64,000 nucleotides of DNA from Rufibacter ruber. Its GTDB lineage: Bacteria; Bacteroidota; Bacteroidia; Cytophagales; Hymenobacteraceae. The notes beneath the pieces are model-generated. The model saw only the letters and a list, made by a program, of their open reading frames with translations, made no database searches and had not been told where the DNA came from. Positions within the stretch are counted from its first letter, which is position 1. Every line of letters begins with the position of its first letter. The stretch lies in contig NZ_LRMM01000006.1 of assembly GCF_001647275.1 (NCBI RefSeq), positions 62,001 to 126,000 of the forward strand. Reading direction: 5' to 3'. The position numbers and the translations under genes were made by a program. Below, piece after piece: positions 498 to 62,985 of the stretch.

Positions 498-543
498 TTT
501 CTGTTTTTGGCCTGTTTTTAAGAAAACAGGCAAAAAACAGAAA
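498..543. repeat. Intergenic palindrome, copy 1
   Basis: Imperfect hairpin with TTTCTGTTTTT on the left and AAAAAACAGAAA on the right, between the stop of the porin gene and the start of the miaE-like gene (both minus strand). It belongs to the window-wide family described in the findings; the core reads TGGCC against GGCAA, so this copy is partly decayed. Confidence 0.8.
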
Positions 544-586
544 CTGCACACTGGCTTGTTCTGGGAATTATAGTGAGGTGAAGACC

Positions 587-2542
587 TTAGTCATAGAAAT
601 TCCATTTCACCCCAAACTGGAAGCTGAAGGGGTTGGCAGCATAATACGGGGTGGTGAAGTAGCCTTGCTCCCAGCCGCTGGTTATGTTGTTGATGTGGCT
701 TAGCTTCAGGAACAGGTTCACCGTTTTGATATCTGTGTTCAAGAAGACATCAAACGTGGGGTACCGGGTAATCAGGAAGGAGTTCTGCAGATGGAACTGC
801 TGGGTCACGGGCATGTACCCGTCTGCATAGTAATCAGTATGCCAGTTCATCTCAAGGCCGGCCTGCAGGAAGATGGCTTTTTTGAAGAGCGGCCCTTCCC
901 AGTACGCCTTGGCATTCACGTACCACTCCGGCATCCGAATGGCTTTTGGTCCGCTGGAGCTGTTGTAGTAGAGCGTGTTGTCAAACACAAAATGCTTCAG
1001 ATTGAATTTATGCCGAAGCACCCCCTGCACCAGGTTGATAGCCCCGGACACCTGTTCTGGTTCAGCCCACTTTCCCCCAATAGAATCCTGGTAAAACACG
1101 TAATCACGTATGTTGGAGAACTGCAACTCAGCAAAGAAATAATGATTCTTCACCGTAGCCTCTACGGTTGCGGCTGTCTGGTTCACAGACACGTTTTTAA
1201 AGCTGTTAGACCATTCAAAATGATTGCTGAGCAGCCGCCGCTGCGTGAGTGTGGGTGAGTAAGAGGTACGGGTTTGCCTAAAGGCCAAGTACTTGTATTT
1301 CGCCTCGGCATTGATCCGGTAGTCCCCACCGCCAATCTGGAATTCTGCATCTGTGGTGACATAGATGTCATTTCTGAGCCTGAATTGCGCCTGCCCCCCT
1401 ACAAAGTTTTCGGCAATGTCCAGGGTGGATTTATCCTGTTCATACCCCGCAGAATCTGCAGGCAGCCCGTTACGGGTGATGGGAATCAAAATGGCATCCC
1501 TTGCCTGGGTTTCATACCGGCCATCCCTTCTTTTGGCATATGCCCTGTAAACGAAAAGCCTGGTTGCCCCCATTACCCCGAAGGTGTTTTCCATCTGCCG
1601 GAAGTAGGTATTGTCTTCGGTTTGAGCAGAGTCACGCAAAACGGAAGGATAAAAAATCAACTCTCCTCTTTTAGAGTTATCAATGGACTGAAAGGGAATG
1701 CCATTTTCTGAGAAATCATTGCTCTGGCTGCCGTAGTCTAAGGTATGGTACAGTTGCAGACCAGAACCAATTAACCTAAGCCATTGGGTGGCGTGCAGCT
1801 GGTACCTTTTCTCCTCAGAGGCCGCCTGCTCCAACCAAACCGATTCATCTTTGTAATCAAAAAGGCTGTCCCGGGTATCGCCGGGTTTCGGCCTGATCCC
1901 CCCTAGTTCAATCTGCACATGACTGGTCTGGGCAAAGTTGGCTACCAGGCGGTACCGTTGGTTCGGGCTGAAGTAATGGGTAAACGTCTGCAAACCGTAA
2001 TGGCTTAAGAACCCGTCCTGCCCAATAAGGAACGCCCCAAACTGGCGCTCGGCGCTCAGCCGCTCATACCCAATGCCCACGTTCCAGTTAGGAGAGATGT
2101 TACGGGTGTGCTTTGCCCTGAACACCTGCTCCCCCAGGGTTCCCTGCAGGTAATTCAGATAGGTAAAGGGAGATTTAGTGTCATAGTACTCTATGGTTGC
2201 CGGATTCACGGCGTAGGCGTCAAACGCATTTCTCCCTAACCGGGAACCCAACGTGAGAGGCATCTTCCAGAAAAGGGGCTGGGAAGCAGTGCCTACGTTC
2301 CCTAAATCCTGTTGCAGGGTTTTGTCATAATACCAGTGCCTCACCACCTGCATATTAGTCAGTAATGTGTCAATGGGCGAAAAAACGGTGTCACCCTTAA
2401 AAATATCGCGTTCATAAATGACTTTGACCGTGGCAGAACCATAAATGGCCTTGGTAGAGTCATCTATTACTTGTGCCTCTGAGAAAGAAAAGGTCCCTGC
2501 CCAAAGAAGCATGACAGCAGCTATAAATTTTGAGTACTTCAC
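587..2542 (-). CDS. Putative porin (Bacteroidota outer-membrane beta-barrel)
   Basis: About 651 residues with a cleavable signal peptide (hydrophobic run FIAAVMLLWAGTFSFSEAQ) followed by a protein rich in alternating aromatic and polar strands and ending in FQFGVKWNFYD, an aromatic C-terminal strand typical of outer-membrane barrels. It resembles the Bacteroidota 'putative porin' family (Porin_10 type); the transported solute is unknown. The longest frame opens with TTG six bases further upstream, but the GTG at 2540-2542 gives a better signal-peptide N-region. It follows lpxK with only a few bases between, so the two are probably co-transcribed, which suits an envelope operon (lipid A synthesis plus an outer-membrane protein). 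Family assignment is by memory of the sequence style. Confidence 0.75.
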   Translation of the reverse strand: MKYSKFIAAVMLLWAGTFSFSEAQVIDDSTKAIYGSATVKVIYERDIFKGDTVFSPIDTLLTNMQVVRHWYYDKTLQQDLGNVGTASQPLFWKMPLTLGSRLGRNAFDAYAVNPATIEYYDTKSPFTYLNYLQGTLGEQVFRAKHTRNISPNWNVGIGYERLSAERQFGAFLIGQDGFLSHYGLQTFTHYFSPNQRYRLVANFAQTSHVQIELGGIRPKPGDTRDSLFDYKDESVWLEQAASEEKRYQLHATQWLRLIGSGLQLYHTLDYGSQSNDFSENGIPFQSIDNSKRGELIFYPSVLRDSAQTEDNTYFRQMENTFGVMGATRLFVYRAYAKRRDGRYETQARDAILIPITRNGLPADSAGYEQDKSTLDIAENFVGGQAQFRLRNDIYVTTDAEFQIGGGDYRINAEAKYKYLAFRQTRTSYSPTLTQRRLLSNHFEWSNSFKNVSVNQTAATVEATVKNHYFFAELQFSNIRDYVFYQDSIGGKWAEPEQVSGAINLVQGVLRHKFNLKHFVFDNTLYYNSSSGPKAIRMPEWYVNAKAYWEGPLFKKAIFLQAGLEMNWHTDYYADGYMPVTQQFHLQNSFLITRYPTFDVFLNTDIKTVNLFLKLSHINNITSGWEQGYFTTPYYAANPFSFQFGVKWNFYD

Positions 2543-2550
2543 GTCCAAAA

Positions 2551-3621: not shown

Positions 3622-3627
3622 ACCGTG

Positions 3628-5589: not shown

Positions 5590-5633
5590 TTTCTGTTTTG
5601 GCTGTTTTCTTGAAAACAGGCCCAAAACAGAAA
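5590..5633. repeat. Intergenic palindrome, copy 2
   Basis: TTTCTGTTTTGG left arm and GGCCCAAAACAGAAA right arm; the left core is two bases shorter than the right. It lies between a true terminator and the promoter of pabB, so at this place it is not needed as a terminator. Confidence 0.85.
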
Positions 5634-5709: not shown

Positions 5710-7008
5710 ATGCAACAGCTCTCAGTGGCGTTTGATTCTTTGCCCGTTCCTGTCTCCCTCTGGAAACAGAAAGCCCTGGCTTGGGCAGAAGCACACCATG
5801 AGGCGGTGGCTTACTATGAACCTAACCAAATCCCTTACCGCCACCAGGCTTTCCAGAATATATTAGGGGTTAGGGCGCGGGCAGAAGCGACTCCTGGCGT
5901 TGATTGCGCCCATTCCTGGCAAGACCTCAGCCTCCTGCTCCAGCAGCAGCAGCAAACGCCGTTGCTGGGCTTTCTGACCTATGATTTAAAAAACGGGCTG
6001 GAGCAGCTGCAAAGCCACCACCCAGATTTCATTGGGTTCCCCCCACTCTACTTTTTCCGTCCAGAGACATGGTTTGTTTTTGACAAGGCTAAGGTGACCA
6101 TTTTCTCTACCGTAGCACAGCCGCAAGTCATTTTACAGACAATTAATGCATGGGCGTTTTTGACCTCTTTTTCTGAAAACAGGCTAAAAATGCAAGCCCG
6201 GGTATCTAAAGAGAAGTACGTGCAGACCGTGCAGCAACTCAGGCAACATATTCTGGAAGGTGATGTCTACGAGGTTAACTACTGCCAGGAATTTTACGCT
6301 GAAAACGCGCAGCTAGAACCCTCTTCGCTGTTCTGGAAACTGAATGCGGCCTCGCCCACTCCTTTTGCCGGTTTTTTAAAACTGCAGCAGAAGTACCTGC
6401 TGTGCGCCAGCCCTGAGCGGTTCCTGAAAAAAGAAGGGAACCTGTTGGTCTCGCAGCCCATCAAAGGCACCAGCAAGCGCGGCAGTTCTCCGGCAGAAGA
6501 CCTGGCCCGGCGCAGGGCTCTGGCCAGTAACGAGAAAGAGCAGGCCGAAAATATGATGATTGTAGACCTGGTGCGCAATGACCTTAACCGCGTAGCCGAA
6601 ACCGGTAGTGTACAGGTTGAAGAGCTCTTTGGGCTGTATGGGTTCAAATATGTCTGGCAGATGATTTCTACCGTCACCGGTACGCTGCCCGCAGAGGTTT
6701 CTGCCGTTTCTGCGCTACAAGCGGCTTTTCCTATGGGCAGCATGACCGGAGCCCCCAAAATAATGGCCCTGGAGTTAATTGAAACCTATGAGCAAACCAA
6801 GCGGGGGCTCTATTCCGGCAGCTTCGGGTATTTTTTACCTAACAGAGATTTTGATTTCAATGTGGTCATCCGGAGCCTGCAGTACAATGCAACCTCAGGG
6901 TACGTGAGTTTTGAGGTAGGCAGCGCCATTACCTATGACTCTGACCCCGAGCAGGAATACCAGGAGTGCCTGCTCAAGGCGGCTGCCATTCTAAAGATTC
7001 TTTCATAA
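5710..7008 (+). CDS. pabB: Aminodeoxychorismate synthase component I (or anthranilate synthase component I family)
   Basis: Chorismate-binding enzyme; adds the amide nitrogen to chorismate on the way to 4-aminobenzoate and folate. About 432 residues. The C-terminal chorismate-binding domain shows GDVYEVNYCQEF, PIKGTSKRGSSP, NEKEQAENMMIVDLVRNDLNR, FPMGSMTGAPK and GLYSGSFGYF, all signature blocks. PIKGT rather than the PIAGT of anthranilate synthase favours PabB. I prefer the ATG at 5710 over 5677 because of the promoter-like element between them. A degenerate copy of the palindromic element lies in frame at about residues 149-162 (6154-6193). No glutaminase partner (PabA) is next to it; the gene stands alone. 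It could be a dual-use TrpE-like enzyme, but this is less likely. Confidence 0.85.
   Translation: MQQLSVAFDSLPVPVSLWKQKALAWAEAHHEAVAYYEPNQIPYRHQAFQNILGVRARAEATPGVDCAHSWQDLSLLLQQQQQTPLLGFLTYDLKNGLEQLQSHHPDFIGFPPLYFFRPETWFVFDKAKVTIFSTVAQPQVILQTINAWAFLTSFSENRLKMQARVSKEKYVQTVQQLRQHILEGDVYEVNYCQEFYAENAQLEPSSLFWKLNAASPTPFAGFLKLQQKYLLCASPERFLKKEGNLLVSQPIKGTSKRGSSPAEDLARRRALASNEKEQAENMMIVDLVRNDLNRVAETGSVQVEELFGLYGFKYVWQMISTVTGTLPAEVSAVSALQAAFPMGSMTGAPKIMALELIETYEQTKRGLYSGSFGYFLPNRDFDFNVVIRSLQYNATSGYVSFEVGSAITYDSDPEQEYQECLLKAAAILKILS
6154..6193. repeat. Degenerate palindrome inside pabB
   Basis: Arms GCGTTTTTGACCT and AGGCTAAAAATGC around TCTGAAAAC resemble the intergenic family (arm TTTT, core, TGAAAACAGGC). 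It is read through in frame as FLTSFSENRLKM, between two conserved parts of the enzyme. Match is weaker than for the intergenic copies. Confidence 0.4.
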
Positions 7009-7079: not shown

Positions 7080-7126
7080 TTTCTGTTTTCGGGCTGTTTT
7101 TTGAAAAACATGACCCGAAAACAGAA
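7080..7126. repeat. Intergenic palindrome, copy 3
   Basis: TTTCTGTTTTCGGGC left and ACCCGAAAACAGAA right: the variable core pair is C:G. A small insertion (ATG) breaks the inner right arm. Confidence 0.85.
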
Positions 7127-10815: not shown

Positions 10816-12423
10816 ATGAACAAAGCGGCATTTTTAAATATAGTACGGCAGGTAGCCCCCATTCAGGACCAGGAAGTGGAAGACCTGGAGAAACTGGTGG
10901 TATCGTTTCCGTATTGCCAGACCGCCCATGTTCTATTGGCCAAAGCAGCCTATGACCGCGGCAGCATGCTCTCCACCCAGAAACTGAGACGGGCGGCGGC
11001 GCATGTTTCAAACCGCCAGCTCCTGAAACGCCTGGTTTACTCCCAGCCCCCAGTGCAGGAAGTGTTGGTGCTGCCGCCTGCGCCAGACGAAACCGCTGTT
11101 CCTGTTTTAGAGCTGGTTTCTGAAAAACAGGCCGAAAACAGCTTCGTGCAGGCTGATGTGGAAGACGTGGTATTGGTTGCCGCAGAAACAGAAGAGCAAG
11201 CTGACGCGTATTTGCAGGACCCCATACCAACAGCCCCTTTCACAGAAGAGGAACTGCATAGCGAAGAAAAGCTTGCCATAGGCTATGACCCTTCTCTAGC
11301 GCCTGAAGCCGCCATTCTGGAGGCCCTTGCCTCTCTGGACGAAGAAGACCTGCAGGAGGTGTTACCCGAAGCACTGGAGGAACCCCAGGAAGCGGCACCA
11401 GAACGTGCAGAGGTGGCAGAGGCAGCGCCAGAAGTTACTCTGGCAGAAGACACCTTTCCCCAACATCCAGAATCACCCGACCTTCCTGAAGAGGATGTCT
11501 TAGAGGCTGTACCGGAGGTAACCAGTGAGGTTGTCTCTGAAGAACCAGAGACAACCGTTGCTTCAGAAGCAGAGAACATTTCTCAGGATACCAGCCAGGA
11601 AGATGAAACTGAGCTCTTTGATTTAATCCAGATCAACAGCCTGTTTACCTATACGGCGCCTAAACCTCCCATCGCTTTTACCCATGAGGAGATTGTTTCT
11701 GAAATTGTATCTACCTCATTAAAAGCCGAAAACAACGCCTTACCTCCTGCTGCAGTGGAGGTAGATTCTGAGCCGGAGGCAGCGTTCACAGAAAACAGCA
11801 CTGAGAACACAGCCGCACTTGAGGTTTCGCTTGCGCCCAATGCCTTTGTAACGGAGCAGCAGCCCACAGAACAACAGGCCTACCAGTACCCAACAGTGGC
11901 CTTCTCTGCTAACGGCCAGGAGGCAGTTGCCGGTACAGAGGCAGCTGATTCCTATCTGAACATATTCTACCAGAACAGCCTGGCCTACTGGATGGACTCC
12001 AGCCGCCTGGGTGAGAGCCTGCAGCTGAAAGATGAGTTAACGTCTGCCAAGCCCTACTACTTCCAGCCTGACCTGATTCTGGAGCATGTAAGGCAGAATG
12101 CAACGGAGAAGCGCGTACCTGCCGCTGAGGCCCCGGCTGCTAAACTGGACCAGCAGCTGGACATCATTAACCAGTTCCTGAAATCTAATTCCCGGTTAAA
12201 GACGCTGGCCAGTGTGCAGCAGAAGAATGAGCCGCAGGAAGACCTTTCAGCGAAGAGCTCTAAAATTAAGAAGAACCTTGCCTCTGAGAACCTGGCGCAG
12301 ATTTACATCAAACAAGGCAAAGGCCGGAAAGCCGTTAAAATTTATGAGCAGCTCATTGTAAAGTTTCCCGAAAAAAAGAGTTACTTTGCACAACAAATTG
12401 AAAAATTAAGAAACGAACCTTAG
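10816..12423 (+). CDS. Acidic low-complexity protein with C-terminal TPR motif
   Basis: 535 residues, function unknown. The N-terminal 75 residues (MNKAAFLNIVRQVAPIQDQE...) form a conserved-looking helical head; residues about 80-380 are a very acidic, Glu/Pro/Ala-rich disordered region; the last 120 residues are helical and end with one clear TPR-like hairpin (ENLAQIYIKQGKGRKAVKIYEQLI). No signal peptide is visible. It sits one base before secG and 96 bases after lptE, so it is probably in the same operon and may serve secretion or the envelope. A palindromic element of the intergenic family is read in frame at residues about 96-109 (11102-11141), inside the disordered part where an insertion would be tolerated. 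Confidence 0.8.
   Translation: MNKAAFLNIVRQVAPIQDQEVEDLEKLVVSFPYCQTAHVLLAKAAYDRGSMLSTQKLRRAAAHVSNRQLLKRLVYSQPPVQEVLVLPPAPDETAVPVLELVSEKQAENSFVQADVEDVVLVAAETEEQADAYLQDPIPTAPFTEEELHSEEKLAIGYDPSLAPEAAILEALASLDEEDLQEVLPEALEEPQEAAPERAEVAEAAPEVTLAEDTFPQHPESPDLPEEDVLEAVPEVTSEVVSEEPETTVASEAENISQDTSQEDETELFDLIQINSLFTYTAPKPPIAFTHEEIVSEIVSTSLKAENNALPPAAVEVDSEPEAAFTENSTENTAALEVSLAPNAFVTEQQPTEQQAYQYPTVAFSANGQEAVAGTEAADSYLNIFYQNSLAYWMDSSRLGESLQLKDELTSAKPYYFQPDLILEHVRQNATEKRVPAAEAPAAKLDQQLDIINQFLKSNSRLKTLASVQQKNEPQEDLSAKSSKIKKNLASENLAQIYIKQGKGRKAVKIYEQLIVKFPEKKSYFAQQIEKLRNEP
11102..11141. repeat. Palindrome copy inside a reading frame
   Basis: CTGTTTTAGAGCTGGTTTCTG on one side and CAGGCCGAAAACAG on the other match the intergenic family closely, yet the sequence is translated as LELVSEKQAENS in the acidic protein. 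Arms pair with a few mismatches. Confidence 0.65.
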
Positions 12424-12864: not shown

Positions 12865-12875
12865 TTACCCTTTCT

Positions 12876-12911
12876 GTTTCTGGCCTGTTTTTCTGAAAAC
12901 AGGCCAGAAAC
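12876..12911. repeat. Intergenic palindrome, copy 4
   Basis: Variant core: GTTTCTGGCCTG against CAGGCCAGAAAC, fully paired although it differs from the common core at several positions. It follows directly on a true terminator. Confidence 0.85.
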
Positions 12912-12932
12912 GCCACATGGCTCACACTTAAA

Positions 12933-15178: not shown

Positions 15179-15223
15179 TTTCTGTTTTTCGCTGTTTTGG
15201 CTAAAACAGCCCGAAAACAGAAA
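15179..15223. repeat. Intergenic palindrome, copy 5
   Basis: TTTCTGTTTTTCG left and CCCGAAAACAGAAA right, loop region GTTTTGGCTAAAAC. It lies between convergent genes, next to the groEL terminator and four bases from the stop of the next gene. Confidence 0.85.
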
Positions 15224-20408: not shown

Positions 20409-20451
20409 TTTCTGTTTTTGGCTTATTTTTGGAAAAACGGCTCCAAAACAG
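20409..20451. repeat. Intergenic palindrome, copy 6
   Basis: TTTCTGTTTTTGGCTTATTTT left and CGGCTCCAAAACAG right, partly decayed. It ends only 6 bases before the rsmE start codon, so it would be part of that gene's 5' leader. Confidence 0.75.
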
Positions 20452-22172: not shown

Positions 22173-22213
22173 TTTCTGTTTTCGGGCTGTTTTACAGAAA
22201 ACAGGCTAAAAAC
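22173..22213. repeat. Intergenic palindrome, copy 7
   Basis: TTTCTGTTTTCGGGCTGTTTT left and AAAACAGGCTAAAAAC right; the right core has lost pairing with the left core. Confidence 0.8.
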
Positions 22214-22309
22214 GCCTGCTTAAATGCGCCTCGCCAGAAACCGTACCTTTAAATCTACCAGGTGGCTTTTCTTTAAAGCTATTTCATTGTTGACGCAGTA
22301 GACCTCTCC

Positions 22310-22351
22310 TTCTGTTTTACACCTGATTTCAGAAAAATGGCTCATAAACAG
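22310..22351. repeat. Intergenic palindrome, copy 8 (degenerate)
   Basis: TTCTGTTTTACACCTGATTTC and AGAAAAATGGCTCATAAACAG keep the layout of the family but pair poorly. Taken as a decayed copy because of its place between two good copies. Confidence 0.45.
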
Positions 22352-22483: not shown

Positions 22484-22529
22484 TTTCTGTTTTGAGGCTG
22501 TTTTCTGGAAAACAGCCTCAAAACAGAAA
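22484..22529. repeat. Intergenic palindrome, copy 9
   Basis: Perfectly paired arms with core GAGGC / GCCTC, a compensated variant of the usual GGGGC / GCCCC. Confidence 0.9.
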
Positions 22530-23996: not shown

Positions 23997-25934
23997 TTAT
24001 CCTAACAAGTCTGCCAGCACCGCTTTGAAGTTATCTACAAAGGCATCTACCCGCATATTGCCCATGTCACCAAGGCCATGCTTACGCACGGAGACAATCT
24101 CATTCTCCTGCTCCTTCTCCCCTACAATGAGCATGTACGGCACTTTTCCAACTTCGGCATCCCTGATTTTACGGCCAATCTTCTCGTCACGGGTGTCTAC
24201 ATGGCCTCTTATATCCTGCTCGGCCAGCTGGTCTAACACTTTTTGGGCGTAGTCATGGTATTTCTCAGAGATAGGCAGAATGGCTACCTGCTCCGGGCTC
24301 AGCCACAGCGGGAAGTGCCCCCCGCAATGCTCAATCAAAACCGCCACAAAGCGTTCCAAGGAACCAAAAGGTGCGCGGTGAATCATGACCGGACGGTGCT
24401 TTTCATTGTCTGAGCCAATATACTCCAACTGGAAGCGCTCCGGCAAATTGTAGTCCACCTGAATGGTACCTAACTGCCATTTGCGGCCCAAGGCATCTTT
24501 CACCATGAAGTCCAGCTTAGGTCCATAGAACGCAGCCTCGCCCAACTCGGTTACGGTGCGCAGGCCTTTCTCTTCGGCGGCTTCAATGATGGCGCGCTCG
24601 GCTTTCTCCCAAACATCATCTGATCCAATGTATTTGGTTTTGTTCTCAGGGTCCCGCAAGGAGATCTGGGCCGTATAATCTTCAAAGCCCAGCGCCCTGA
24701 AGACATAGAACACCAGGTCAATTACTTTCTTGAACTCCTCTTTCACCTGGTCTGGGCGGCAGAAAATGTGGGCGTCATCCTGGGTAAAACCCCGCACCCT
24801 GGTCAAGCCATGCAGCTCGCCGCTCTGCTCGTACCGGTACACCGTCCCAAACTCGGCCAGCCGCACCGGAAGCTCTTTGTAGGAGCGCGGGCGGGTCTTA
24901 TAGATTTCGCAGTGGTGCGGACAGTTCATGGGCTTCAGCAAGAACTCCTCATTTTCATTTGGCGTCTTGATGGGCTGGAACGAGTCTGCCCCATATTTCT
25001 CATAGTGCCCAGAGGTCACATACAGCTCTTTGCTGCCTATGTGCGGAGTTACCACCGGCTGATATCCTGCCTTCTGTTGGGCCCGGCGCATGAACTGCTC
25101 TAAACGCTCACGCAGCATGGTTCCCTTGGGCAGCCACAGCGGTAACCCCATGCCTACTTTCTCTGAGAAGGCGAACAGCTCCAGTTCTTTGCCCAACTTA
25201 CGGTGGTCTCGGCGTTTTGCCTCCTCCAGACGCTCCAGATACTCAGTGAGTTCCTTCTGCTTAGGAAACGTGATGGCATACACCCGGGTCAGCTGCTTAC
25301 TTTTCTCATCACCGCGCCAATAGGCTCCGGCCACGTTCATTAATTTGGCTGCCTTGATAAACCCGGTGTTCGGAATATGGGGGCCGCGGCAAAGGTCAGT
25401 GAAGTTACCTTGGGTATAAAAGGTTATGGAACCGTCTTCCAGCCCTTCCAGGAGGTCTAGCTTATAAGGATCGTTTTTCTCAGTGAAATAAGCAATGGCC
25501 TCATCTTTACTGATAGGTTTGCGCACGAACTCACTTTTCTGACGGGCCAACTCCAGCATTTTCTGCTCAATGGCAGGGAAATCCTCCTGTGAAAGGGTGC
25601 GGTCATCTCCCAAGTCAATGTCATAATAGAAGCCGTTGTCTATGGCAGGGCCAATACCCAGCTTAACACCGGGGTACAGCGCCTCCAGCGCCTCTGCCAT
25701 CAAGTGGGCCGAGGAGTGCCAGTAGGTAGCTTTTCCTTCATCATCATTCCAGGTGAGCAGCTGTACAGAGGCGTCTTGGGTAATGGGGCGCGTCAGGTCC
25801 CACACTGATCCATTTACTTTTACTGCCAGCACGTTGCGTGCCAGCCCCTCACTAATGGATGCGGCAATTTCAATGCCGCTTACGCCCTCCTGGTACTCCC
25901 TGATGGATCCGTCGGGTAAGGTGATCTTAATCAT
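23997..25934 (-). CDS. thrS: Threonine--tRNA ligase
   Basis: 645 residues. N-terminal TGS domain ([20 protein letters not shown]), editing domain with [17 protein letters not shown], and class II core: [15 protein letters not shown], zinc site [10 protein letters not shown], motif 2 [28 protein letters not shown], motif 3 [11 protein letters not shown], and the anticodon domain with [17 protein letters not shown]. First gene of the translation operon, 86 bases before infC; no T-box or operator hairpin seen in front of it, only a palindrome copy. Confidence 0.98.
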
Positions 25935-25950
25935 ATGGCAAGTGTATAAC

Positions 25951-25997
25951 TTCTCGTTTTCGGCTTGTTTTTCGCAAAATAGCTAAAAAACAGATTT
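25951..25997. repeat. Palindrome copy 10, overlapping the end of a gene
   Basis: TTCTCGTTTTCGGCTTGTTTTT left and AGCTAAAAAACAGATTT right. The right arm covers the last codons and stop of the TPR lipoprotein gene (stop at 25983-25985), so the element is partly translated. Confidence 0.75.
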
Positions 25998-27050
25998 CGC
26001 CGCTATAGTATCAATGAATGTTCTTCTTATGGGGCGGGTGATCCGCTGCAAAGCAGCGGCATACCGGGGGTTCTCCGGGTGCTTTCTCACCAGTAAATGA
26101 TAGTGCTGCCGGGCTAATTCGCGTTGCCCTGTCCATTCAAAACAGGTGGCCAGTAGCCAACGGGTGTTGTCATTGAGTTTCAAGCCCAGTTCCTGCGCCT
26201 TCAGGAGGTTCTCTAAAGCCAGGCTATACTGCCGTTTCTTATACCAGCCCTCGGCTATGCCGGCATACGCCTCTGCGTCTTTAGGTTCCAGGTCAATGGC
26301 TTTGGCAAAGGTGGCCATGGCCGTGTCAGTGAGCCGTTGGTTTAACAAAACCTGACCTAACCTGCGCCACCAGATACCATCCTGGGGCTCCTGCTTTACA
26401 CCAGCCTGTACCATGGGGTACGCTTCTTCAAACCTGCTCTGGGCGGTATAAATAGAGCTGAGCTCTCTGAACGCCGCCAGGTTGGTAGAATCCCGCTGCA
26501 GTGCCCGTTTTAAATTATACAACGCCCTGGTGGTGTCACCAGTTCCCGCCTGCGCGCGTGCGAGCAATACATAATACGTAGGCTCCCCCGGTCTGAGCCT
26601 GACCGCCCGGGCGCTTGGGGTTAACGCTTTTTCATAAAGCGCGAGCCCCACGTAGGTCTGCGCCAGTACAGCTTCTGATTCTGGAGTGTAATAGTTGAAG
26701 GCCTTGGCCTGCATCATGCTTTTCATGGCCTCCTGATATTCTTTGCGGGCCACCTGTATCTTTGCCTGCAGAAAATAAGCCTCTCCCAGGGAAGGGTTCA
26801 AGGCCGTGGCAGTAGACAGGTCCTGAAAAGCTGCCTGCTGGTTGCCACCGGCCAGATATAGCCTGGCCCTTTTCAGGAACCACTCCGGCTCCTCGTTGCC
26901 TTTCTCCAGAGCCCTGGATATTTCCTGAATCTGAGTTTTTAAGCTGCTGTCTACCTTGGAAGGCAGAAACATACGTTCCTGCATAGTCTCTTGGGAACAA
27001 GAGGCCAGGCCGAGGAAGGAGAAAAGAACCAGCTTTACAGGATAACGCAT
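25983..27050 (-). CDS. TPR-repeat lipoprotein
   Basis: 355 residues. Lipoprotein signal MRYPVKLVLFSFLGLASC (Cys 18), then about eight tetratricopeptide repeats (for example AAFQDLSTATALNPSLGEAYFLQAKIQ, ALYNLKRALQRDSTNLAAFRELSSIY, AMATFAKAIDLEPKDAEAYAGIAEGWY). It is a protein-protein scaffold at the membrane; partner unknown. The last few residues (SVF) are encoded by an arm of a palindrome element, which also supplies the TAG stop, suggesting the original C-terminus was altered when the element arrived. 48 bases upstream of thrS and on the same strand, so co-transcription is possible. Confidence 0.85.
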   Translation of the reverse strand: MRYPVKLVLFSFLGLASCSQETMQERMFLPSKVDSSLKTQIQEISRALEKGNEEPEWFLKRARLYLAGGNQQAAFQDLSTATALNPSLGEAYFLQAKIQVARKEYQEAMKSMMQAKAFNYYTPESEAVLAQTYVGLALYEKALTPSARAVRLRPGEPTYYVLLARAQAGTGDTTRALYNLKRALQRDSTNLAAFRELSSIYTAQSRFEEAYPMVQAGVKQEPQDGIWWRRLGQVLLNQRLTDTAMATFAKAIDLEPKDAEAYAGIAEGWYKKRQYSLALENLLKAQELGLKLNDNTRWLLATCFEWTGQRELARQHYHLLVRKHPENPRYAAALQRITRPIRRTFIDTIAAKSVF

Positions 27051-27110
27051 GCCGCGAGTGAATCTACCAAAGACGTTCGGGCGAAGATACAGGATTAAGG
27101 GCTTTTTTTA

Positions 27111-27148
27111 CGTTTTGGGGCTGTTTTTCTCAAAACAGCCCCAAAACG
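27111..27148. repeat. Intergenic palindrome, copy 11
   Basis: CGTTTTGGGGCTGTTTT left and AAAACAGCCCCAAAACG right, perfectly paired with a short loop; core pair G:C. It ends four bases before the stop of the DUF5686 gene. Confidence 0.9.
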
Positions 27149-27151
27149 CAG

Positions 27152-36760: not shown

Positions 36761-36812
36761 CTTTTCCTGTTTTTGGGCTGTTTTTGTAAAAACAGCCCAA
36801 AAACAGGAAAAG
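36761..36812. repeat. Palindrome copy 12, perfect 25-bp stem
   Basis: A 52-base element in which 25 bases on each side pair without mismatch around a GT loop. Core is TGGGC / GCCCA (core pair T:A) and the outer flank is CTTTTCC / GGAAAAG instead of the common TTTCTG / CAGAAA, so both parts are compensated. It begins one base after the permease stop. Confidence 0.95.
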
Positions 36813-36920: not shown

Positions 36921-38319
36921 GTGTACGCCATAGTTGACATAGAAACCACCGGCAGCCAGCCTGCTGAAGACCGCATCACAGAGATAGCGGTTTTCATTCA
37001 TGACGGAAACCAGGTGGTAGACCAGTTCCATAGCCTCATCAACCCCGGCAGGCCCATTCCTTTCTTTATTTCCCAACTCACCGGCATCACAGATGAGATG
37101 GTGAAAGACGCCCCCCGGTTTCATGAGGTGGCCAAGCAGATTGTGCAGATCACAGAAGGCAATGTGTTTGTAGCCCACAATGTGCGCTTTGACTATTCCT
37201 TCCTGAAAAAGGAGTTTGCCGACCTTGGCTTTACCTTTCAGCGCAAAACCCTTTGCACGGTTCGGCTTAGCCGTAAACTGATGCCGGGGCTCCCCTCCTA
37301 CAGCCTGGGCAAGCTTTGCCAGAGCGTGGGCATTCCGTTACAGATGCGCCACCGTGCCATTGGGGACGCAGAGGCGACTTCAGTCCTGTTTGACCGGCTC
37401 CTTAAAATAGACGCTGACAAGGTGAATGACCATCAGGAGGAGAAACCAGATACAGCCTCTACTATCTCTTCTGAAATCAAGACCTCTCTCCTGCCGCCCG
37501 CTATCTCACGTGAGATGGTGCAGGCGCTTCCGCTGGAGGCGGGGGTGTATTACTTTCATGATGAGCACGGCGAGGTCATCTACGTAGGCAAGAGCAAGAG
37601 CATTAGAAAGCGCATCATACAACACTTCAACATTGACTATAAAAGCAAGAAGTCTGTAGAGTTCAAGAACCGCATTGCCAGCATCACCTATGAACGCACC
37701 GGCAGTGAACTGGTGGCCCTGCTCTTTGAGTCTGATGAGATAAAGAAGCGCAAACCCTACTACAACCGGGCCCAGCGGCGCAGCGTCTACCACTCCGGCA
37801 TCTACTCCTACTATGACCAGCAGGGCTACCTGCGCCTCACCTATCAGAAAGCCAAGACCGAAGTGGCTCCCATGCTCACCATGGCCAACCAGTTTCAGGC
37901 CAAGAACTTCCTGTTCAGCCGCGTGGCCAAGTACAACCTCTGCCAGAAACTCTGCGACCTGTACAAGTCAAACGGAGCCTGTTTTGACTACCAGGTGCAC
38001 CAGTGCAAAGGCGCCTGCATAGGCAAAGAGTCGCCAGAAGAATACAACCAGCGGGTGCTGGAGGCGGTAGAGGCCTTTAAGTATGACCATGACTCGTTTG
38101 TGATCATCCGCCGCGGCAAACCAGGAGGAGAAGTCTGTGGTGGTGGTAGACAACGGCTGCTACCTGGGGTTTGGGTACGTAGATGAAACCTTCACGGCCA
38201 CCGGTCTGGAAGATTTTAAAGGGGCCATCAAGCCCTACAATGACAACAAAGACACCCAGCAGATCATCAGGGGGTATCTGCGCACCAAACACAATGACAA
38301 GGTGCTGGTGTTTTCTTAA
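36921..38319 (+). pseudogene. DnaQ-like exonuclease plus GIY-YIG nuclease protein, frameshifted near the 3' end
   Basis: The first 400 codons read a DEDDh 3'-5' exonuclease domain (AIVDIETTGSQPAEDRITEIAVF at the start, HNVRFDYSFLKKEF, and HRAIGDAEATSVLFDRL with the catalytic His and Asp) followed by a GIY-YIG nuclease domain at about 203-285 (GVYYFHDEHGEVIYVGKSKSIRKRIIQHFN) and a UvrC-like Cys region (KYNLCQKLCDLYKSNGACFDYQVHQCKGAC). At about 38,118 the frame shifts: downstream, family-like sequence (NQEEKSVVVVDNGCYLGFGYVDETF) continues in another frame to a stop at 38,317-38,319, while the original frame ends at 38,186 with unrelated residues. The defect lies at a run of A (GGCAAACC), consistent with loss of two bases or gain of one. 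It may be a real mutation or a sequencing error; all domains before it are intact. Start GTG at 36921. Confidence 0.75.
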
Positions 38320-38326
38320 GCGGCGG

Positions 38327-38372
38327 TTTCTGTTTTCGGCTTGTTTTTGAAAAAACAGCCCGAAAACGGAGT
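38327..38372. repeat. Intergenic palindrome, copy 13
   Basis: TTTCTGTTTTCGGCTTGTTTTT left and AAACAGCCCGAAAACGGA right, between convergent genes; nearly touches the stop of the gene at 38375. Confidence 0.85.
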
Positions 38373-38374
38373 TT

Positions 38375-41740: not shown

Positions 41741-41786
41741 TTTCTGTTTTCGGGCTGGTTTAGCCAAAACAGCCCGAAAACAGAAA
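41741..41786. repeat. Intergenic palindrome, copy 14
   Basis: TTTCTGTTTTCGGGCTG left and CAGCCCGAAAACAGAAA right, core pair C:G, between convergent genes; a tetranucleotide tract begins one base after it. Confidence 0.9.
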
Positions 41787-42959: not shown

Positions 42960-43005
42960 TTTCTGTTTCGGGGCTGTTTTTCCAAAAACAGCCCTAAAAC
43001 AGAAA
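42960..43005. repeat. Intergenic palindrome, copy 15
   Basis: TTTCTGTTTCGGGGCTGTTTTT left and AAACAGCCCTAAAACAGAAA right; two core mismatches. It separates the YdcF-like gene from the SGNH gene. Confidence 0.85.
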
Positions 43006-44434: not shown

Positions 44435-44473
44435 CTGTTTCTGGGCTGTTTTCTGAAAAACAGGCCAGAAACG
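44435..44473. repeat. Intergenic palindrome, copy 16
   Basis: CTGTTTCTGGGCTGTTTT left and CAGGCCAGAAACGG right; related to the GTTTCTGGCC subtype of copy 4. Confidence 0.8.
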
Positions 44474-44532
44474 GCGGCATAAGCAAACGCCGGAACTTTA
44501 GTAAAGAAAAAGGAGAAGCCCTCAACAGGAGC

Positions 44533-44572
44533 TTTGTTTTGGGGCCAATTTCAGAAAAACAGCTCCAAAACA
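44533..44572. repeat. Intergenic palindrome, copy 17 (decayed)
   Basis: TTTGTTTTGGGGCCAATTTC left and AACAGCTCCAAAACA right. Outer arm pairs well, the inner part is worn. Confidence 0.65.
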
Positions 44573-44612
44573 TAAAAGACAAGCAAATGGTGGTTAAGCC
44601 TTTGGCAGCGTG

Positions 44613-45657: not shown

Positions 45658-45702
45658 TTCTGTTTTCGGGCTGTTTTCCTGAAAACAGCCCGAAAACAGA
45701 AA
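45658..45702. repeat. Intergenic palindrome, copy 18
   Basis: Perfectly paired TTCTGTTTTCGGGCTGTTTTC arm; core pair C:G. It separates the NHL lipoprotein gene from the isomerase-like gene. Confidence 0.95.
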
Positions 45703-47116: not shown

Positions 47117-47160
47117 TTCTGTTTTGGGGCTGTTTTTCAGAAAACAGCCCCAAAACAGAA
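47117..47160. repeat. Intergenic palindrome, copy 19
   Basis: Perfectly paired TTCTGTTTTGGGGCTGTTTT arm; core pair G:C. In the 160-base gap between the phosphodiester glycosidase gene and the NHL gene. Confidence 0.95.
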
Positions 47161-54059: not shown

Positions 54060-54535
54060 GGATGAGGTGCCTTATACCTTACAAGAGACAAGTGTAGGCT
54101 GGCACACACACATTCTTTTACAATTTTTTTTTCGAAAGGGGAAATGTAGCCAGGAACGGCAGATGCGCACACCGGTGGCTGGCGGGGAGAAGAAAATCCT
54201 GTTTTGGGGCTGTTTTTCTAAAAACAGGCCTAAAACGCACAGCAAAACCAATTACCCCCGTTTCACCCGTTAGGCTGACGGCCTTCCCGTGCAGGCTCTG
54301 TACTAGCCCTGGGGGCGGGGGAAATTTTTACAAGAATTTTTCTTTATATTGCTCAGGCCTGAATAGAAGGCAAAGGAAAGACTTCGTAATCAAAAGATAA
54401 CCTGGCCGTAACATTGGCTTGACGAAGTTTCCCGTGTTTTGTGGCAAGAGAAGGTCAGGTGAAGAGTAACCAGTAGTGGCGTTTCCCTCTTAGGGCATGA
54501 TTGAATATGCTCAAATCTGAGTTCAAAGAAGCAGT
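54060..54535. other. Divergent control region of the sigma/FecR locus
   Basis: 476 bases between fecR and the sigma gene. It holds palindrome copy 20, a perfect 10-bp palindrome TCAGGCCTGA at 54353-54362 that might be an operator, and A/T-rich sequence around 54325-54350. The promoter itself was not identified. Confidence 0.5.
54198..54237. repeat. Intergenic palindrome, copy 20
   Basis: CCTGTTTTGGGGCTGTTTT left and AAACAGGCCTAAAACG right, two core mismatches. It lies between divergent genes, where no terminator is needed. Confidence 0.8.
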
Positions 54536-55125: not shown

Positions 55126-55171
55126 ATGCTGTTTTGGGGCTGTTTTTCAGAAAACAGCCCCAAAACAGCAT
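55126..55171. repeat. Intergenic palindrome, copy 21
   Basis: Perfectly paired over 20 bases per arm, with the outer flank ATGCTG / CAGCAT replacing TTTCTG / CAGAAA, again compensated. Core pair G:C. Between convergent genes. Confidence 0.95.
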
Positions 55172-55193: not shown

Positions 55194-56270
55194 CTACACC
55201 GCCCCCTTCACCTCCTGCAGCATTTTGATCACAAACGCCTCTGTGCGGGACAGGAACGGGTTCTCTTTCCGTTTCTTGGCGTCATGCCTGCGCAAGTAGT
55301 CAATTAACTTGTCTTGTTTAAACAGGTTCACCACCTCTGGGTGAATGTAGTACTTGCTGCAGACAGTGGGCGTGTTGCCCAGCTCATGCGCCACCATCTT
55401 GGCGGCTTCTTTCACAGACTTCTCCTTCTCAATCTCAGGGTTCTCGTCTATCAGCTGTTCCAGGCATTCTACCATCATCACGGTGCCGCCCCAGGTTCTG
55501 AAATCTTTGGCGGTGAACTCCTCGGCACTCAGGCTGCGCAGGTAGTCGTTCACGTCTCCAGATTCTATGGGCTGGCGGTTGCCGTCTTCATCATAGTACT
55601 GGAACAGGTCATACCCGGGAATATCCTGGCACTGCTTCACCAGCTTGGCCAACCGCCGGTCTTTGATGGTGATTTCATGCTGAATGCCTTTCTTGCCCAC
55701 AAACTCCAGCTTAAGGTTACTGCCCTCAATCTTCACGTGCCGGTCCCGCAGCGTGGTGAGCCCGAAAGACTTGTTTTCTTTGGCGTAGGCCTTGTTGCCA
55801 ATCCTGATAAAGGAATTGTCCAGCAGTTCTACCACAATGGCCAGGATCTTGCGTTTCTCCAGCTTCTTCCGCTTCAGGTCTTTCTCCACCTGCTTCCTGA
55901 TCTCGGGCAAGGCTTTGCCAAACGCAATCATGCGGCCAAACTTGTTCAGGCTGCGCACTTCCTTCCACTGGGCGTGGTAGAGGTACTGTTTGCGCCCCTT
56001 GTCATCCCGGCCGGTGGCTTGTATGTGGCCGTTGGCCGAAGGGCAGATCCATACCTCTGTCCAGGCGGGCGGAATCACCAGACGGTTGATCCGGTCAAGG
56101 GTCTTCCCGTCTTCCACCGGCTCCCCTTTCGGGGTGAAATACGCTACCTTCTTGCCGTTGCTGCGGCGCGTGATTCCTGGTTTGGTGTCTGGATAATAGC
56201 GCAAGCCGGCTAGCTGGGCAGAGGCGGCCACATCAGCGTAAACAGCAGCGGGTGAAAGTTCTTGTTCCAT
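55194..56270 (-). CDS. DNA topoisomerase IB (poxvirus-type)
   Basis: 358 residues. Relaxes supercoils by making a 3'-phosphotyrosyl link. Seen: KEPV-like start SNGKKVAYFTPKGEPV, RINRLVIPPAWTEVWICPSANGHIQATGRDDKGRKQYLYHAQW, KRKILAIVVELLDNSFIRIGN, SFGLTTLRDRHVKIEG, the active-site helix AKDFRTWGGTVMMVECL and the nucleophile in TPTVCSKYYIHPEVVNLF (the second Tyr of SKYY aligns with the usual catalytic residue, as I recall). Sporadic in bacteria, often with patchy spread, so horizontal origin is possible, but base composition is like its neighbours. Stands alone. Confidence 0.93.
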   Translation of the reverse strand: MEQELSPAAVYADVAASAQLAGLRYYPDTKPGITRRSNGKKVAYFTPKGEPVEDGKTLDRINRLVIPPAWTEVWICPSANGHIQATGRDDKGRKQYLYHAQWKEVRSLNKFGRMIAFGKALPEIRKQVEKDLKRKKLEKRKILAIVVELLDNSFIRIGNKAYAKENKSFGLTTLRDRHVKIEGSNLKLEFVGKKGIQHEITIKDRRLAKLVKQCQDIPGYDLFQYYDEDGNRQPIESGDVNDYLRSLSAEEFTAKDFRTWGGTVMMVECLEQLIDENPEIEKEKSVKEAAKMVAHELGNTPTVCSKYYIHPEVVNLFKQDKLIDYLRRHDAKKRKENPFLSRTEAFVIKMLQEVKGAV

Positions 56271-56327
56271 GGGTGGTTCTTGGTCTGGGTATGTCCTTTA
56301 ACTGCCAGGGAGGGTAAAAGTTTCTTT

Positions 56328-56369
56328 TTCTGTTTTGGGGCCGTTTTCTCAAAAACAGCCCCAAAACAG
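56328..56369. repeat. Intergenic palindrome, copy 22
   Basis: TTCTGTTTTGGGGCCGTTTT left and AACAGCCCCAAAACAGGA right; between divergent genes. Confidence 0.85.
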
Positions 56370-56471
56370 GAGGCCTTGGCCTTTGCTCTAAATATATTTT
56401 CTTTGCCCCCTGATCTACCTGCCCCAGGTCTGCGTAGTAGGCGGAGACCTGATACTTTCTGACCAATTTGT

Positions 56472-58610: not shown

Positions 58611-58652
58611 GCTGTTTTAGGGCAGTTTTCAGAAAAGGAGGCTAAAAACAGC
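58611..58652. repeat. Intergenic palindrome, copy 23 (decayed)
   Basis: GCTGTTTTAGGGCAGTTTTC left and GGAGGCTAAAAACAGC right; outer arm intact, core damaged. Confidence 0.65.
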
Positions 58653-58855: not shown

Positions 58856-59317
58856 TCAACTGGAGTGGTCAGCCAATATTTTCCATTTTCCGGCTATTTT
58901 TCTGAAAACAAGCGAAAAGTGGCCGCCAATGTCTCCCATGCTCCGCTTCAGGTGCCATTGGCCCACCACCAGCAGCACGTCTTTTGCCAACTCCTTAGTT
59001 TGCAGCAGGGTGAACGTGAGTTCGCCCATGGCTTCTCAGGTTGGATAGCCTTTGCGGTAGTTTTGCAGGGTTTGGTCCCAGCCATAGGTAAGGCCGCTCT
59101 TGCCAATGAACATTAGGGAATCTGAGTGCCAGTACGGTTCCATATAGCTTTCCAGGTCGCCCCGGTTCCAGGCCTGGCTTTGCGCCTGCATGATAGCGGC
59201 AATCTCAGTTGGGGCCTGTGAAGGGGATGTTCTGGTGCTGCGGCAGTTGGTGAAACCCAGGGCCAAAGCAGAGGCTACCATGTATAAACAGACACGGGTA
59301 AGGAAAGCGTTTTTCAT
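58856..59317 (-). pseudogene. DUF4440/SnoaL-like exported protein, broken by in-frame TGA
   Basis: From the ATG at 59317 the frame gives a signal peptide (FLTRVCLYMVASALALGFTNC) and an NTF2-fold domain (EIAAIMQAQSQAWNRGDLESYMEPYW, SLMFIGKSGLTYGWDQTLQNYRKGYPT), then TGA at 59036-59038, codon 94. Beyond the TGA the same frame continues without another stop for 60 codons with the rest of the family domain (MGELTFTLLQTKEL, LVVGQWHLKRSMGDIGGHFSLVFRKIAGKWKILADHSS) to a TGA at 58856-58858. One substitution (for example CGA to TGA) explains it. The start overlaps the mtgA stop in ATGA form, so it was translationally coupled to mtgA. Function of the family here unknown. Confidence 0.85.
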
Positions 59318-60039: not shown

Positions 60040-60155
60040 CAAATCAATAGTTTCCAGACACTAGAGCGCCTCAATGAAAGACAAAAATAAAGAATTACTG
60101 GCAGCATCTGGAAAGCGTTCTTAAATTAGTAGCCTTACTCATCAATACTAGCAGC

Positions 60156-60791: not shown

Positions 60792-60839
60792 CCTGCTTCT
60801 TCAGTAAGAGGAAGACCAACCAACACTCCCGCCCCTGTA

Positions 60840-62201: not shown

Positions 62202-62927
62202 GTCATCAATACTGTCTGTGTACATCCGGTAAAGGATTCCCAGGCTGGCGGTCTTGGGGAACGGCTCCAGAATGCAGATCTCAAATTTGCCGTCATTGAT
62301 CACGCCATTGGGGTTAATGGTGGCATTGCTCCCAAAGGCTTTGGCATTGGTAACGGTAAGCATAAAGGCCTCCCCGTCAAAAAGGGTCTCCCCTTCAGAA
62401 ATAACCGTATACCGTTTGGGTTCATAGCTCATATATTCCTGCATGGCTATCCAGGCGTAAGCGCCGGGGCCGCGGGTGTCTCCCTCGCAGAACCTTTTCA
62501 CCACCAGGGCATTGAAGCCCATGTCACAGAGATGGATGGAATGGTGGCCAGAAACTTGCAGCGTATCTATCGCTTTCACCTTATGCTCTGCCAATAAATG
62601 GAGCGCCTCCTCAAAGTCCTGGGGAATGTCCAGATCTTTTGACAAGCCATTGCCAGACCCCTGCGGAATAATAGCCAGTTGAGTAGGAGAATCAATCAGG
62701 AGTTTGGCCACCAGATTCACGGTGCCATCTCCCCCCATAGCCACCACCACATCAGGTTGTCCCTGTTCTATCTCCTGCTGGAGCTTTTGTTCATCCTGCT
62801 CCCCGGTGGTTCTGAAAAAAGAAGCAGAGATCTGGTGGCGTTGGCAGAACGCCACCAGATCCTCTTCCAGGTCTTCTTTGTCTATGTCTCCTGAAATGGG
62901 ATTGATTACAAAAAGAATCTTGGTCAT
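62031..62927 (-). CDS. Diacylglycerol/lipid kinase family protein (YegS/BmrU type)
   Basis: 298 residues, full length. LFVINPISGDIDKEDL at the start, the GGDGT motif in VVAMGGDGTVNLVAKLLID, IIPQGSGNGLSKDLDIP, and the C-terminal domain with ITVTNAKAFGSNATINPNGVINDGKFEI and HIDGEPVDLPEKIEFKV. Phosphorylates a lipid such as diacylglycerol, sphingoid base or undecaprenol at the membrane. Its last 57 codons overlap the antisense end of the phosphoesterase gene; the kinase sequence looks normal to the end, so the overlap arose on the other strand. Confidence 0.93.
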   Translation of the reverse strand: MTKILFVINPISGDIDKEDLEEDLVAFCQRHQISASFFRTTGEQDEQKLQQEIEQGQPDVVVAMGGDGTVNLVAKLLIDSPTQLAIIPQGSGNGLSKDLDIPQDFEEALHLLAEHKVKAIDTLQVSGHHSIHLCDMGFNALVVKRFCEGDTRGPGAYAWIAMQEYMSYEPKRYTVISEGETLFDGEAFMLTVTNAKAFGSNATINPNGVINDGKFEICILEPFPKTASLGILYRMYTDSIDDSIYTQRFSCRSATILNHAREVTHIDGEPVDLPEKIEFKVRPQSLHVLLPTPGEQEG

Positions 62928-62945
62928 GGCAGTTTTCAGCTTGGG

Positions 62946-62985
62946 CTGTTTTAGGGCTGTTTTTCAGAAAACAGCCCTAAAACAG
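62946..62985. repeat. Intergenic palindrome, copy 24
   Basis: Perfect arms CTGTTTTAGGGCTGTTTT / AAAACAGCCCTAAAACAG, core pair A:T. Between the M48 and lipid kinase genes on the minus strand. Confidence 0.95.

What the first reader, a model, noticed from the sequence alone, without database searches (positions are those of the whole stretch)
498..62985. A dense family of intergenic palindromes with covarying cores
24 intergenic elements of about 40-50 nt share the arm CTGTTTT-N-GGGC-TGTTTT and a small loop. The base N is C:G in copies 3, 14 and 18, G:C in 11, 19 and 21, A:T in 24 and T:A in 12; copy 9 changes two core bases with both partners changed (GAGGC/GCCTC). Outer flanks also change together (TTTCTG/CAGAAA, ATGCTG/CAGCAT, CTTTTCC/GGAAAAG). 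This is covariation, seen directly: the stem is kept while sequence drifts. The arm itself repeats CTGTTTT twice, so a smaller alternative hairpin is possible. Copies lie next to real terminators and also between divergent genes, so simple termination is not enough. I do not recognise the family.
Basis: partly seen in the sequence, partly recalled or inferred. Interest (0 to 1): 0.78.

Follow-up and report, generated by a model that had tools for sequence, protein, structure and literature searches.

The report
Genus-wide repeated DNA palindromes with dialects
A bacterium of the Rufibacter group and its 15 tested relatives each carry about 150 to 1,800 copies of a 40-letter mirror-image DNA site, often just after genes, that stays at the same places while species rewrite its spelling, which suggests binding sites for an unknown co-evolving protein.

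Summary
In detail: 27 copies in the window, about 1,800 in the genome, none in shuffled controls. The family occurs in all 16 tested genomes of one genus (that of Rufibacter immobilis; 146-1,822 copies) and is nearly absent (0-3) from 134 genomes of five sister genera. Each copy is a dyad of four A/T tracts (GTTT-N9-TTT-N4-AAA-N9-AAAC) with a 4-nt centre. About half of the intergenic copies lie within 90 nt after a stop codon; occupied sites are shared between species far above chance, and the tracts diverge much less than the flanks. Yet species carry their own dialect, also at shared sites. Covariation is genuine, strongest in the outer stem and at positions 5-6, weak or undetected at most inner positions, and there is no G.U excess on the mRNA strand. 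I read the elements as DNA recognition sites of an unidentified, co-evolving protein, with arm symmetry perhaps repaired by replication template switching; a functional DNA hairpin remains the main rival. A REP-transposase (RAYT) link was tested and not supported: one genome without the transposase has 1,045 copies, and RAYT flanks are not enriched. Which protein binds, and what it does, is not shown.

The parts
501..540 (.). palindrome copy, 3 mismatches to 40-mer consensus (inside a called gene end)
   Evidence: inverted repeat I7
5591..5630 (.). palindrome copy, 5 mismatches
6154..6193 (.). diverged copy, 10 mismatches, inside a called gene
7083..7122 (.). palindrome copy with indel, 7 mismatches
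11102..11141 (.). palindrome copy, 3 mismatches (inside a called gene)
12874..12913 (.). palindrome copy, GGCC subtype, 6 mismatches
15181..15220 (.). palindrome copy, 6 mismatches
20412..20451 (.). palindrome copy, 5 mismatches
22176..22215 (.). palindrome copy, 4 mismatches
22312..22351 (.). diverged palindrome copy, 8 mismatches
22487..22526 (.). palindrome copy, GAGGC/GCCTC, 2 mismatches
25954..25993 (.). diverged copy, 7 mismatches; scored as occupied in 5 of 14 relatives with the gap
27110..27149 (.). palindrome copy, 4 mismatches; site occupied in 11 of 14 relatives with the gap
36767..36806 (.). perfect copy (25-bp arms)
38330..38369 (.). palindrome copy, 3 mismatches; convergent gap, site occupied in 12 of 15 relatives
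41744..41783 (.). palindrome copy, 1 mismatch
42963..43002 (.). palindrome copy, 1 mismatch
44435..44474 (.). palindrome copy, 4 mismatches
44534..44573 (.). palindrome copy, 6 mismatches
45660..45699 (.). perfect copy, N = C:G
47119..47158 (.). perfect copy, N = G:C (inside a called gene, start probably overlong)
54199..54238 (.). palindrome copy, 3 mismatches
55129..55168 (.). perfect copy, N = G:C
56330..56369 (.). palindrome copy, 1 mismatch; divergent gap, site occupied in 10 of 12 relatives
58612..58651 (.). palindrome copy, 5 mismatches
58883..58922 (.). diverged copy, 10 mismatches, inside a called small gene
62946..62985 (.). perfect copy, N = A:T

Best explanation
These are double-stranded DNA recognition sites of one genus: a fixed-geometry dyad of two half-sites, each with two A/T tracts about one helical turn apart, often placed just behind genes. 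SHOWN: copy number, geometry, genus restriction, enrichment after stop codons, shared sites between species, low divergence of the tracts, species dialects at shared sites, lack of an RNA-strand signature. INFERRED: that an unidentified sequence-specific protein reads the site; that its changing preference drives the dialects; that it marks or insulates ends of transcription units (roadblock, boundary or supercoil sink). INFERRED for the covariation: because the site can fold back, quasipalindrome template switching primed on the inner stem may copy one outer arm onto the other, so that free outer positions become complementary without selection for an RNA stem.
For: 1,822 copies in the own genome and 146-1,673 in 15 congeners, reversed-pattern control 0. 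Centre exactly 4 nt in 303 of 310 own and 249 of 261 relatives' half-site pairs; half-sites at <=1 mismatch have the partner arm at <=5 mismatches in 573 of 596 (own) and 460 of 502 (relatives) cases. Density 4.7-5.5 per kb within 60 nt after stops, 0.6-1.6 beyond 120 nt, 0.15 within 30 nt of starts. Co-occupied orthologous gaps 640 against 397 +- 21 with species, context and gap length controlled. G003/G014 orthologues: 3.9 mismatches to the family pattern against 8.3 +- 0.4 expected at the flank rate; tract positions 0.85-1.00 identical, flanks 0.79. Dialect marks at shared sites: G012 23/32 half-sites against 2/160 at the same sites in other species; G004 26/38 against 6/158. Near-perfect own copies have 29 different loops in 65 and no flank similarity, so they are not fresh duplicates. 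G.U share 0.525 against 0.523 in flanks. Covariation strongest at -6..0, 5, 6 and in copies with intact inner stem.
Against: No binding protein was identified, and none was looked for systematically. Taken whole, elements are no more identical between G003 and G014 than their flanks (0.792 against 0.791; 0.766 against 0.778), because middle and loop change fast. Loop-centre pairing is avoided (0.163 against 0.289, z = -8), natural for a hairpin, unexplained for duplex DNA. Selection for a DNA hairpin predicts much of the same covariation; in the best-paired copies inner positions 7 and 9 covary somewhat too (own 0.84 against 0.75 and 0.76 against 0.51, n = 100), which blurs the polarity argued for template switching. 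A second density bump lies 90-160 nt before starts (2.4-3.1 per kb), and 43 of 354 copies lie between divergent genes, so 3'-end marking is not the whole story. The own dialect mark is weak at shared sites (20/38 against 45/168). Only 27 and 26 ungapped orthologous sites entered the divergence test.
Confidence: 0.47

Rival explanations
1. Functional DNA hairpin or cruciform: the folded strand itself is bound or extruded, and compensatory changes are selected.
For: In-register covariation at outer pairs and N with no matching excess in slid registers; positions 7 and 9 covary somewhat in the best-paired copies; runs of >=12 contiguous outward pairs in 44 elements against 2.5 expected; loop kept unpaired; in outer flanks 8 pairs changed on both sides and still paired between G003 and G014 against about 1.3 expected by chance.
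Against: Mismatches at inner positions 11-13 are frequent and, pooled, uncompensated; in G013 position 12 is paired in only 0.15 of 13 copies paired at 6, 8, 10 and 11; paired stem positions of G003 that differ in G014 changed on one side 46 times, on both sides with pairing kept 3 times and without 3 times.
Confidence: 0.2
2. RNA hairpin at mRNA 3' ends: stabiliser or unusual terminator.
For: 156 of 300 placed intergenic copies lie 0-90 nt after a stop; in 28 of 354 copies a strong hairpin ends at the element edge, in tandem gaps 11 sense to 2 antisense.
Against: G.U not favoured over A.C on the mRNA strand (0.525 against 0.523 in flanks, p = 0.9; own 0.468, relatives 0.567, neither significant); an A tract rather than a U tract follows the stem; in tandem gaps with both, the element lies downstream of the terminator in 69 of 101; no Rfam match at gathering score.
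Confidence: 0.13
3. REP elements mobilised by RAYT transposases.
For: Three own proteins pass the NCBIfam cut-off for REP-associated tyrosine transposase; relatives in 15 of 16 genus genomes, own included; PMC6006769 says that genes of the Bacteroidetes subclass 2.6 are flanked by atypical structures with copies elsewhere (section read); 3 of 28 RAYT loci are flanked on both sides (G013, G005, one own).
Against: Copies within 200 nt at 7 of 28 loci upstream and 7 of 28 downstream against 0.247 and 0.437 of 884 background genes; G006 has no PF01797 match yet 1,045 copies in a homogeneous dialect; G008 and G015 have RAYTs and the fewest copies; no GTAG-like foot seen; shared positions.
Confidence: 0.1
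4. Non-allelic gene conversion or in-place replacement keeps copies alike within a species.
For: Species marks at shared sites; within-species identity 0.722, orthologues 0.713, between species 0.680.
Against: Loops, N and flanks are not shared between near-perfect copies beyond slight loop/N linkage (0.0120 against 0.0078 expected; flank identity 0.338 against 0.348).
Confidence: 0.1

Closest known systems
Repetitive extragenic palindromes (REP/BIME) with RAYT transposases (PMC3733652, passages; PMC6006769, passages and one section)
   Same: Short palindromes, extragenic, hundreds to thousands of copies; a preference for gene 3' ends is recalled for E. coli REPs, not from a call.
   Different: No GTAG- or CGTC-like tag seen, RAYT neither required nor enriched at flanks, fixed dyad geometry, shared sites with species dialects.
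DNA uptake sequences of Neisseriaceae (dialects, PMC3630211, seen in a search listing only)
   Same: Species-specific dialects of one abundant genomic motif.
   Different: A 40-bp compulsory dyad, nearly absent from genes (0.03 per kb). Uptake was not testable.
Highly iterated palindrome HIP1 of cyanobacteria (PMC4390886, abstract and outline seen)
   Same: Very abundant palindrome, replaced by alternate palindromes in some lineages, linked to a sequence-specific enzyme.
   Different: HIP1 is an 8-mer tied to methyltransferases; this is a 40-bp mostly intergenic dyad.
Hairpins created and maintained by template switching (PMC8794818, abstract and first paragraphs seen)
   Same: Offers a mutational source for compensatory changes in stems.
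   Different: Described there for RNA genes; proposed here for intergenic DNA sites.

Membership tests
REP in the broad sense | short palindrome, extragenic, high copy number | tested here: met
   354 copies <=8 mismatches in 864 kb, 19 inside called genes; 1,822 genome-wide by the degenerate pattern
RAYT-linked REP | tetranucleotide tag (GTAG type) at one foot | tested here: not met
   flank columns show only T-rich positions next to the arm; copies could not be oriented, so a tag in half the flanks would show at reduced frequency, and none did
RAYT-linked REP | repeats flank the transposase gene | tested here: not met
   7/28 and 7/28 against background 0.247 and 0.437; 28 of the 30 loci fetched; three loci are flanked on both sides
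RAYT-linked REP | transposase present where repeats are maintained | tested here: not met
   G006: no PF01797 match, 1,045 copies; the other 15 genus genomes have RAYT relatives
Structured RNA element | covariation throughout the stem | tested here: inconclusive
   pooled: -6..0, 5, 6, mild at 9; some at 7 and 9 in best-paired copies; inner stem has little free variation
Structured RNA element | G.U tolerated on the transcribed sense strand | tested here: not met
   0.525 against 0.523
Structured RNA element | member of a described RNA family | tested here: not met
   no Rfam match at gathering score in the window
Intrinsic terminator | hairpin followed by U tract | tested here: not met
   stem ends in AAAACAG; no association with terminators in convergent (p=0.47) and tandem (p=0.22) gaps, mild positive one in divergent gaps (p=0.03)
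DNA uptake sequence | species dialects of one motif | tested here: met
DNA uptake sequence | drives uptake through a receptor | not testable with these tools
Protein-binding site | fixed spacing and conserved contact positions at orthologous sites | tested here: met
Protein-binding site | a protein that binds it | not tested

The most novel reading that the evidence does not exclude
A genus-specific, genome-wide set of about 150-1,800 DNA boundary sites, often behind genes, read by an unknown protein whose changing specificity has rewritten the sites in place, species by species, while replication template switching keeps the arms symmetrical.
Probability: 0.33. Interest if true: 0.8.

Novelty: new variant of a known kind. 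Interest (0 to 1): 0.62.

Why it matters
Repeats that keep their address but change their spelling as a set are a clean natural experiment on co-evolution of a DNA reader with its thousand sites. The family also warns that covariation in a palindrome need not mean a selected RNA stem: the strand test helps to separate the two. With 16 genomes of one genus at hand, both questions become testable.

Tried and rejected
RAYT/REP was my first reading after finding RAYT proteins and copies around one of them; flank counts and the RAYT-less genome G006 removed it. I first thought that the context densities (convergent 2.64, tandem 1.46, divergent 1.04 per kb) could come from simple avoidance of promoters; the distance profile with its peak just after stops shows a real enrichment there. 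An early orthologue/paralogue comparison (0.713 against 0.750) let paralogues choose their better orientation; with one rule for all the gap shrank (orthologues 0.713, paralogues 0.722, between species 0.680; without sister pairs 0.705, 0.722, 0.678), so the dialect claim rests. A G.U excess in relatives (323 to 237; 305 to 233 after rebuilding the set) was not significant against flank composition (p = 0.15). Terminators as substitutes for elements: no association in convergent and tandem gaps, mild positive association in divergent gaps (p = 0.03). On re-checking, the results (some covariation at positions 7 and 9 in best-paired copies) made me lower the best explanation from 0.50 to 0.47 and the novel case from 0.35 to 0.33, and raise the DNA-hairpin rival from 0.17 to 0.20. 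Literature, judged by listings: palindromic + intergenic repeats + Bacteroidetes + Hymenobacter, 0 papers; Rufibacter + palindrom, 2 papers, not about this; REP / orthologous / conserved position / concerted evolution, 30 papers, 12 listed, none about this; extragenic palindrom / Cytophag / repeat family, 13 papers, 12 listed, none about this. No claim that it is unpublished goes beyond these searches.
Full report
OBSERVATION. The window holds 27 copies of the 40-mer CTGTTTTNGGGCTGTTTT-N4-AAAACAGCCCNAAAACAG at up to 10 mismatches; ten shuffles give none at that level. In 864 kb of the own genome (the window and 40 tiles) there are 402 such copies; one shuffle gives 0.

DISTRIBUTION. With the own dialect (<=3 mismatches of a 38-mer) there are 782 copies in the own genome; of 59 genomes searched, own included, 15 have matches, all in one genus, whose G008 has none; 0 of 43 outside it. 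With a degenerate pattern each of the 16 genus genomes has 146-1,822 copies; of 134 genomes drawn from five other genera of the family 8 have 1-3 and 126 have 0; the reversed-pattern control is 0 throughout. The genus is that of Rufibacter immobilis: contig C10 of G004 has the length of its record NZ_RJJE01000017.1. The name of the own species is not known to me.

ANATOMY. The own dialect can be read as four heptamers CTGTTTT, CTGTTTT, AAAACAG, AAAACAG separated by four bases each, so that tracts recur every 11 bp within an arm. The centre is 4 nt in 303 of 310 own and 249 of 261 relatives' half-site pairs (spacings 0-15 tried), and half-sites hardly ever stand alone (partner at <=5 mismatches in 573 of 596 and 460 of 502). 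Between G003 and G014 (86% identical in the first 60 kb compared) orthologous elements have 3.9 mismatches to the family pattern where 8.3 +- 0.4 would be expected at the divergence of their flanks (27 sites; 4.2 against 8.5 +- 0.4 for 26 sites the other way). The GTTT, TTT, AAA and AAAC positions are 0.85-1.00 identical, the middle 0.50-0.85, the loop 0.46-0.67, the flanks 0.78-0.79; over its whole length the element is no more identical than its flanks (0.792 against 0.791; 0.766 against 0.778). I kept only non-coding sites with equal offset on both sides and at most 5 mismatches in the source; 78 and 83 hits at <=6 mismatches, coding ones included, were found in the two 260-kb blocks.

PLACE. 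Of 354 own copies (<=8 mismatches) 185 lie in tandem gaps, 89 in convergent, 43 in divergent, 19 inside called genes (some probably mis-called) and 18 at stretch edges (gene calls are my own simple ones). For 300 copies placed by the nearest gene end, 156 lie 0-90 nt after a stop; density is 4.7 and 5.5 per kb in the first two 30-nt bins after stops, 0.6-1.6 beyond 120 nt, 0.15 in the 30 nt before starts, with a second bump of 2.4-3.1 at 90-160 nt before starts. In 113 orthologous gap clusters co-occupied species pairs number 640 against 397 +- 21 when occupancy is shuffled within species, context and gap-length class. Examples: gap 38186-38374 occupied in 12 of 15 relatives, 56270-56471 in 10 of 12, 27050-27151 in 11 of 14, 25934-25982 in 5 of 14.

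DIALECTS. Species differ in spelling, strongly in some (own, G004, G012, G013, G006), less in others such as G003 and G014, whose copies are more mixed. At shared sites 23 of 32 half-sites of G012 carry its CTCATTT mark, while 2 of 160 half-sites at the same sites in other species do; for G004 (GTTTAG) 26 of 38 against 6 of 158; for G013 and G006 (sisters with a common dialect) 47/52 and 33/40 against 37/204 and 43/180; the own mark is weaker, 20/38 against 45/168. So old sites were rewritten in place. Near-perfect own copies are not fresh duplicates: 29 different loops among 65, flanks no more alike when loop and N agree (0.338 against 0.348), with only slight loop/N linkage. A common reader with drifting preference explains this most simply; conversion of the arms alone is not excluded.

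COVARIATION. Shuffling right arms within each species (726 of 730 elements, 15 genomes; G002 with 4 elements left out) gives excess pairing at -6..0 (z 2.2-5.9), 5 (4.5) and 6 (8.3), mild at 9 (2.0), none beyond z 1.6 at 7, 8, 10-16, and avoidance of pairing at the loop centre (-8.0); the +1 slid register shows no excess in the stem (its one high value, 6.6 at the loop centre, I put down to the preferred loop motif). The excess sits in 180 elements with at least 9 of 10 inner pairs (position 6: 0.74 against 0.38; position 5: 0.93 against 0.74) and is nearly gone in the other 527 (single values up to z 3.9 at -2). Runs of at least 12 outward pairs occur in 44 elements against 2.5 expected. An outward polarity is what fold-back synthesis primed on the inner stem would leave, a mechanism described for compensatory changes in PMC8794818 (abstract and first paragraphs seen). 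It is an inference, and two results weaken it: the own genome alone has slight inner covariation (z 2.0 over positions 7-13), and in copies paired at 6, 8, 10 and 11 positions 7 and 9 covary somewhat (own, n = 100: 0.84 against 0.75 and 0.76 against 0.51), while 12 and 13 do not in the own genome (0.78 against 0.76; 0.80 against 0.80). Selection on RNA is disfavoured because G.U is not preferred to A.C on the mRNA strand in tandem gaps (488 to 441, flanks 645 to 588; p = 0.9).

TERMINATORS. Element presence is not associated with an intrinsic terminator in convergent or tandem gaps. Where both occur in tandem gaps, 69 of 101 elements lie downstream of the terminator. In 28 of 354 copies a strong hairpin ends within 6 nt of the element edge; offsets 0-5 hold 22 cases against a mean of about 5 per 6-nt bin elsewhere, with 7-10 in the neighbouring bins. 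In listed examples the element's first T tract then follows the hairpin directly.

RAYT. Three 182-183 aa proteins pass the cut-off of NF047646, REP-associated tyrosine transposase; relatives occur in 15 of 16 genus genomes. By eye they resemble subclass 2.6 of PMC6006769 in motifs and length (passages and one section read), which is said there to have atypical flanking structures with copies elsewhere. Here 7 of 28 RAYT loci (of 30 fetched, two fragments left out; one search listed more matches than were fetched) have a copy within 200 nt upstream and 7 of 28 downstream, against 0.247 and 0.437 of 884 background genes. G006 lacks any PF01797 match but has 1,045 copies. RAYTs may have played a part in the family's origin; they do not account for its upkeep.

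VERDICT. A real, genus-specific family of repetitive extragenic palindromes that behaves like a large set of conserved DNA recognition sites with species dialects. The reader protein, the function and the cause of arm symmetry remain to be shown.

Noticed in passing
L017:2990, L021:300, L028:485 and other own loci: Strong terminator-like hairpins of the form AAAACAG...CTGTTTT run straight into the first tract of a palindrome copy (examples; 28 of 354 copies have a strong hairpin ending within 6 nt of the edge).
   Followed up: partly
L167:1117, 1854, 2726 (G009); L017:12837, L018:6276 (own): An inside-out relative, AAAAGAGCCCGGAAA-loop-GTTTCCGGGCTCTTTT or close to it, has a half sequence like that of the family in terminator order.
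   Followed up: no
L057, L058, L059: Three RAYT genes in the own genome; L057 has seven palindrome-like hits (<=12 mismatches) within 3.2 kb.
   Followed up: partly
L146, L147, L148, L149, L156, L168: A RAYT gene lies about 1.5-3 kb from the same S41 peptidase gene in six congeners; in the own genome no RAYT match lies on that contig, suggesting vertical inheritance and loss.
   Followed up: no
G003:C2 about 765.7-769.0 kb: Head-to-tail repeats of about 276 bp within a block shared with G014 (offset self-matches).
   Followed up: no
window 25948-25999: The right half of this weak copy (TAG[CT]TAAAAAAC) is kept in own and 14 relatives while the left half drifts, unlike other sites; perhaps a regulatory site of its own.
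   Followed up: no
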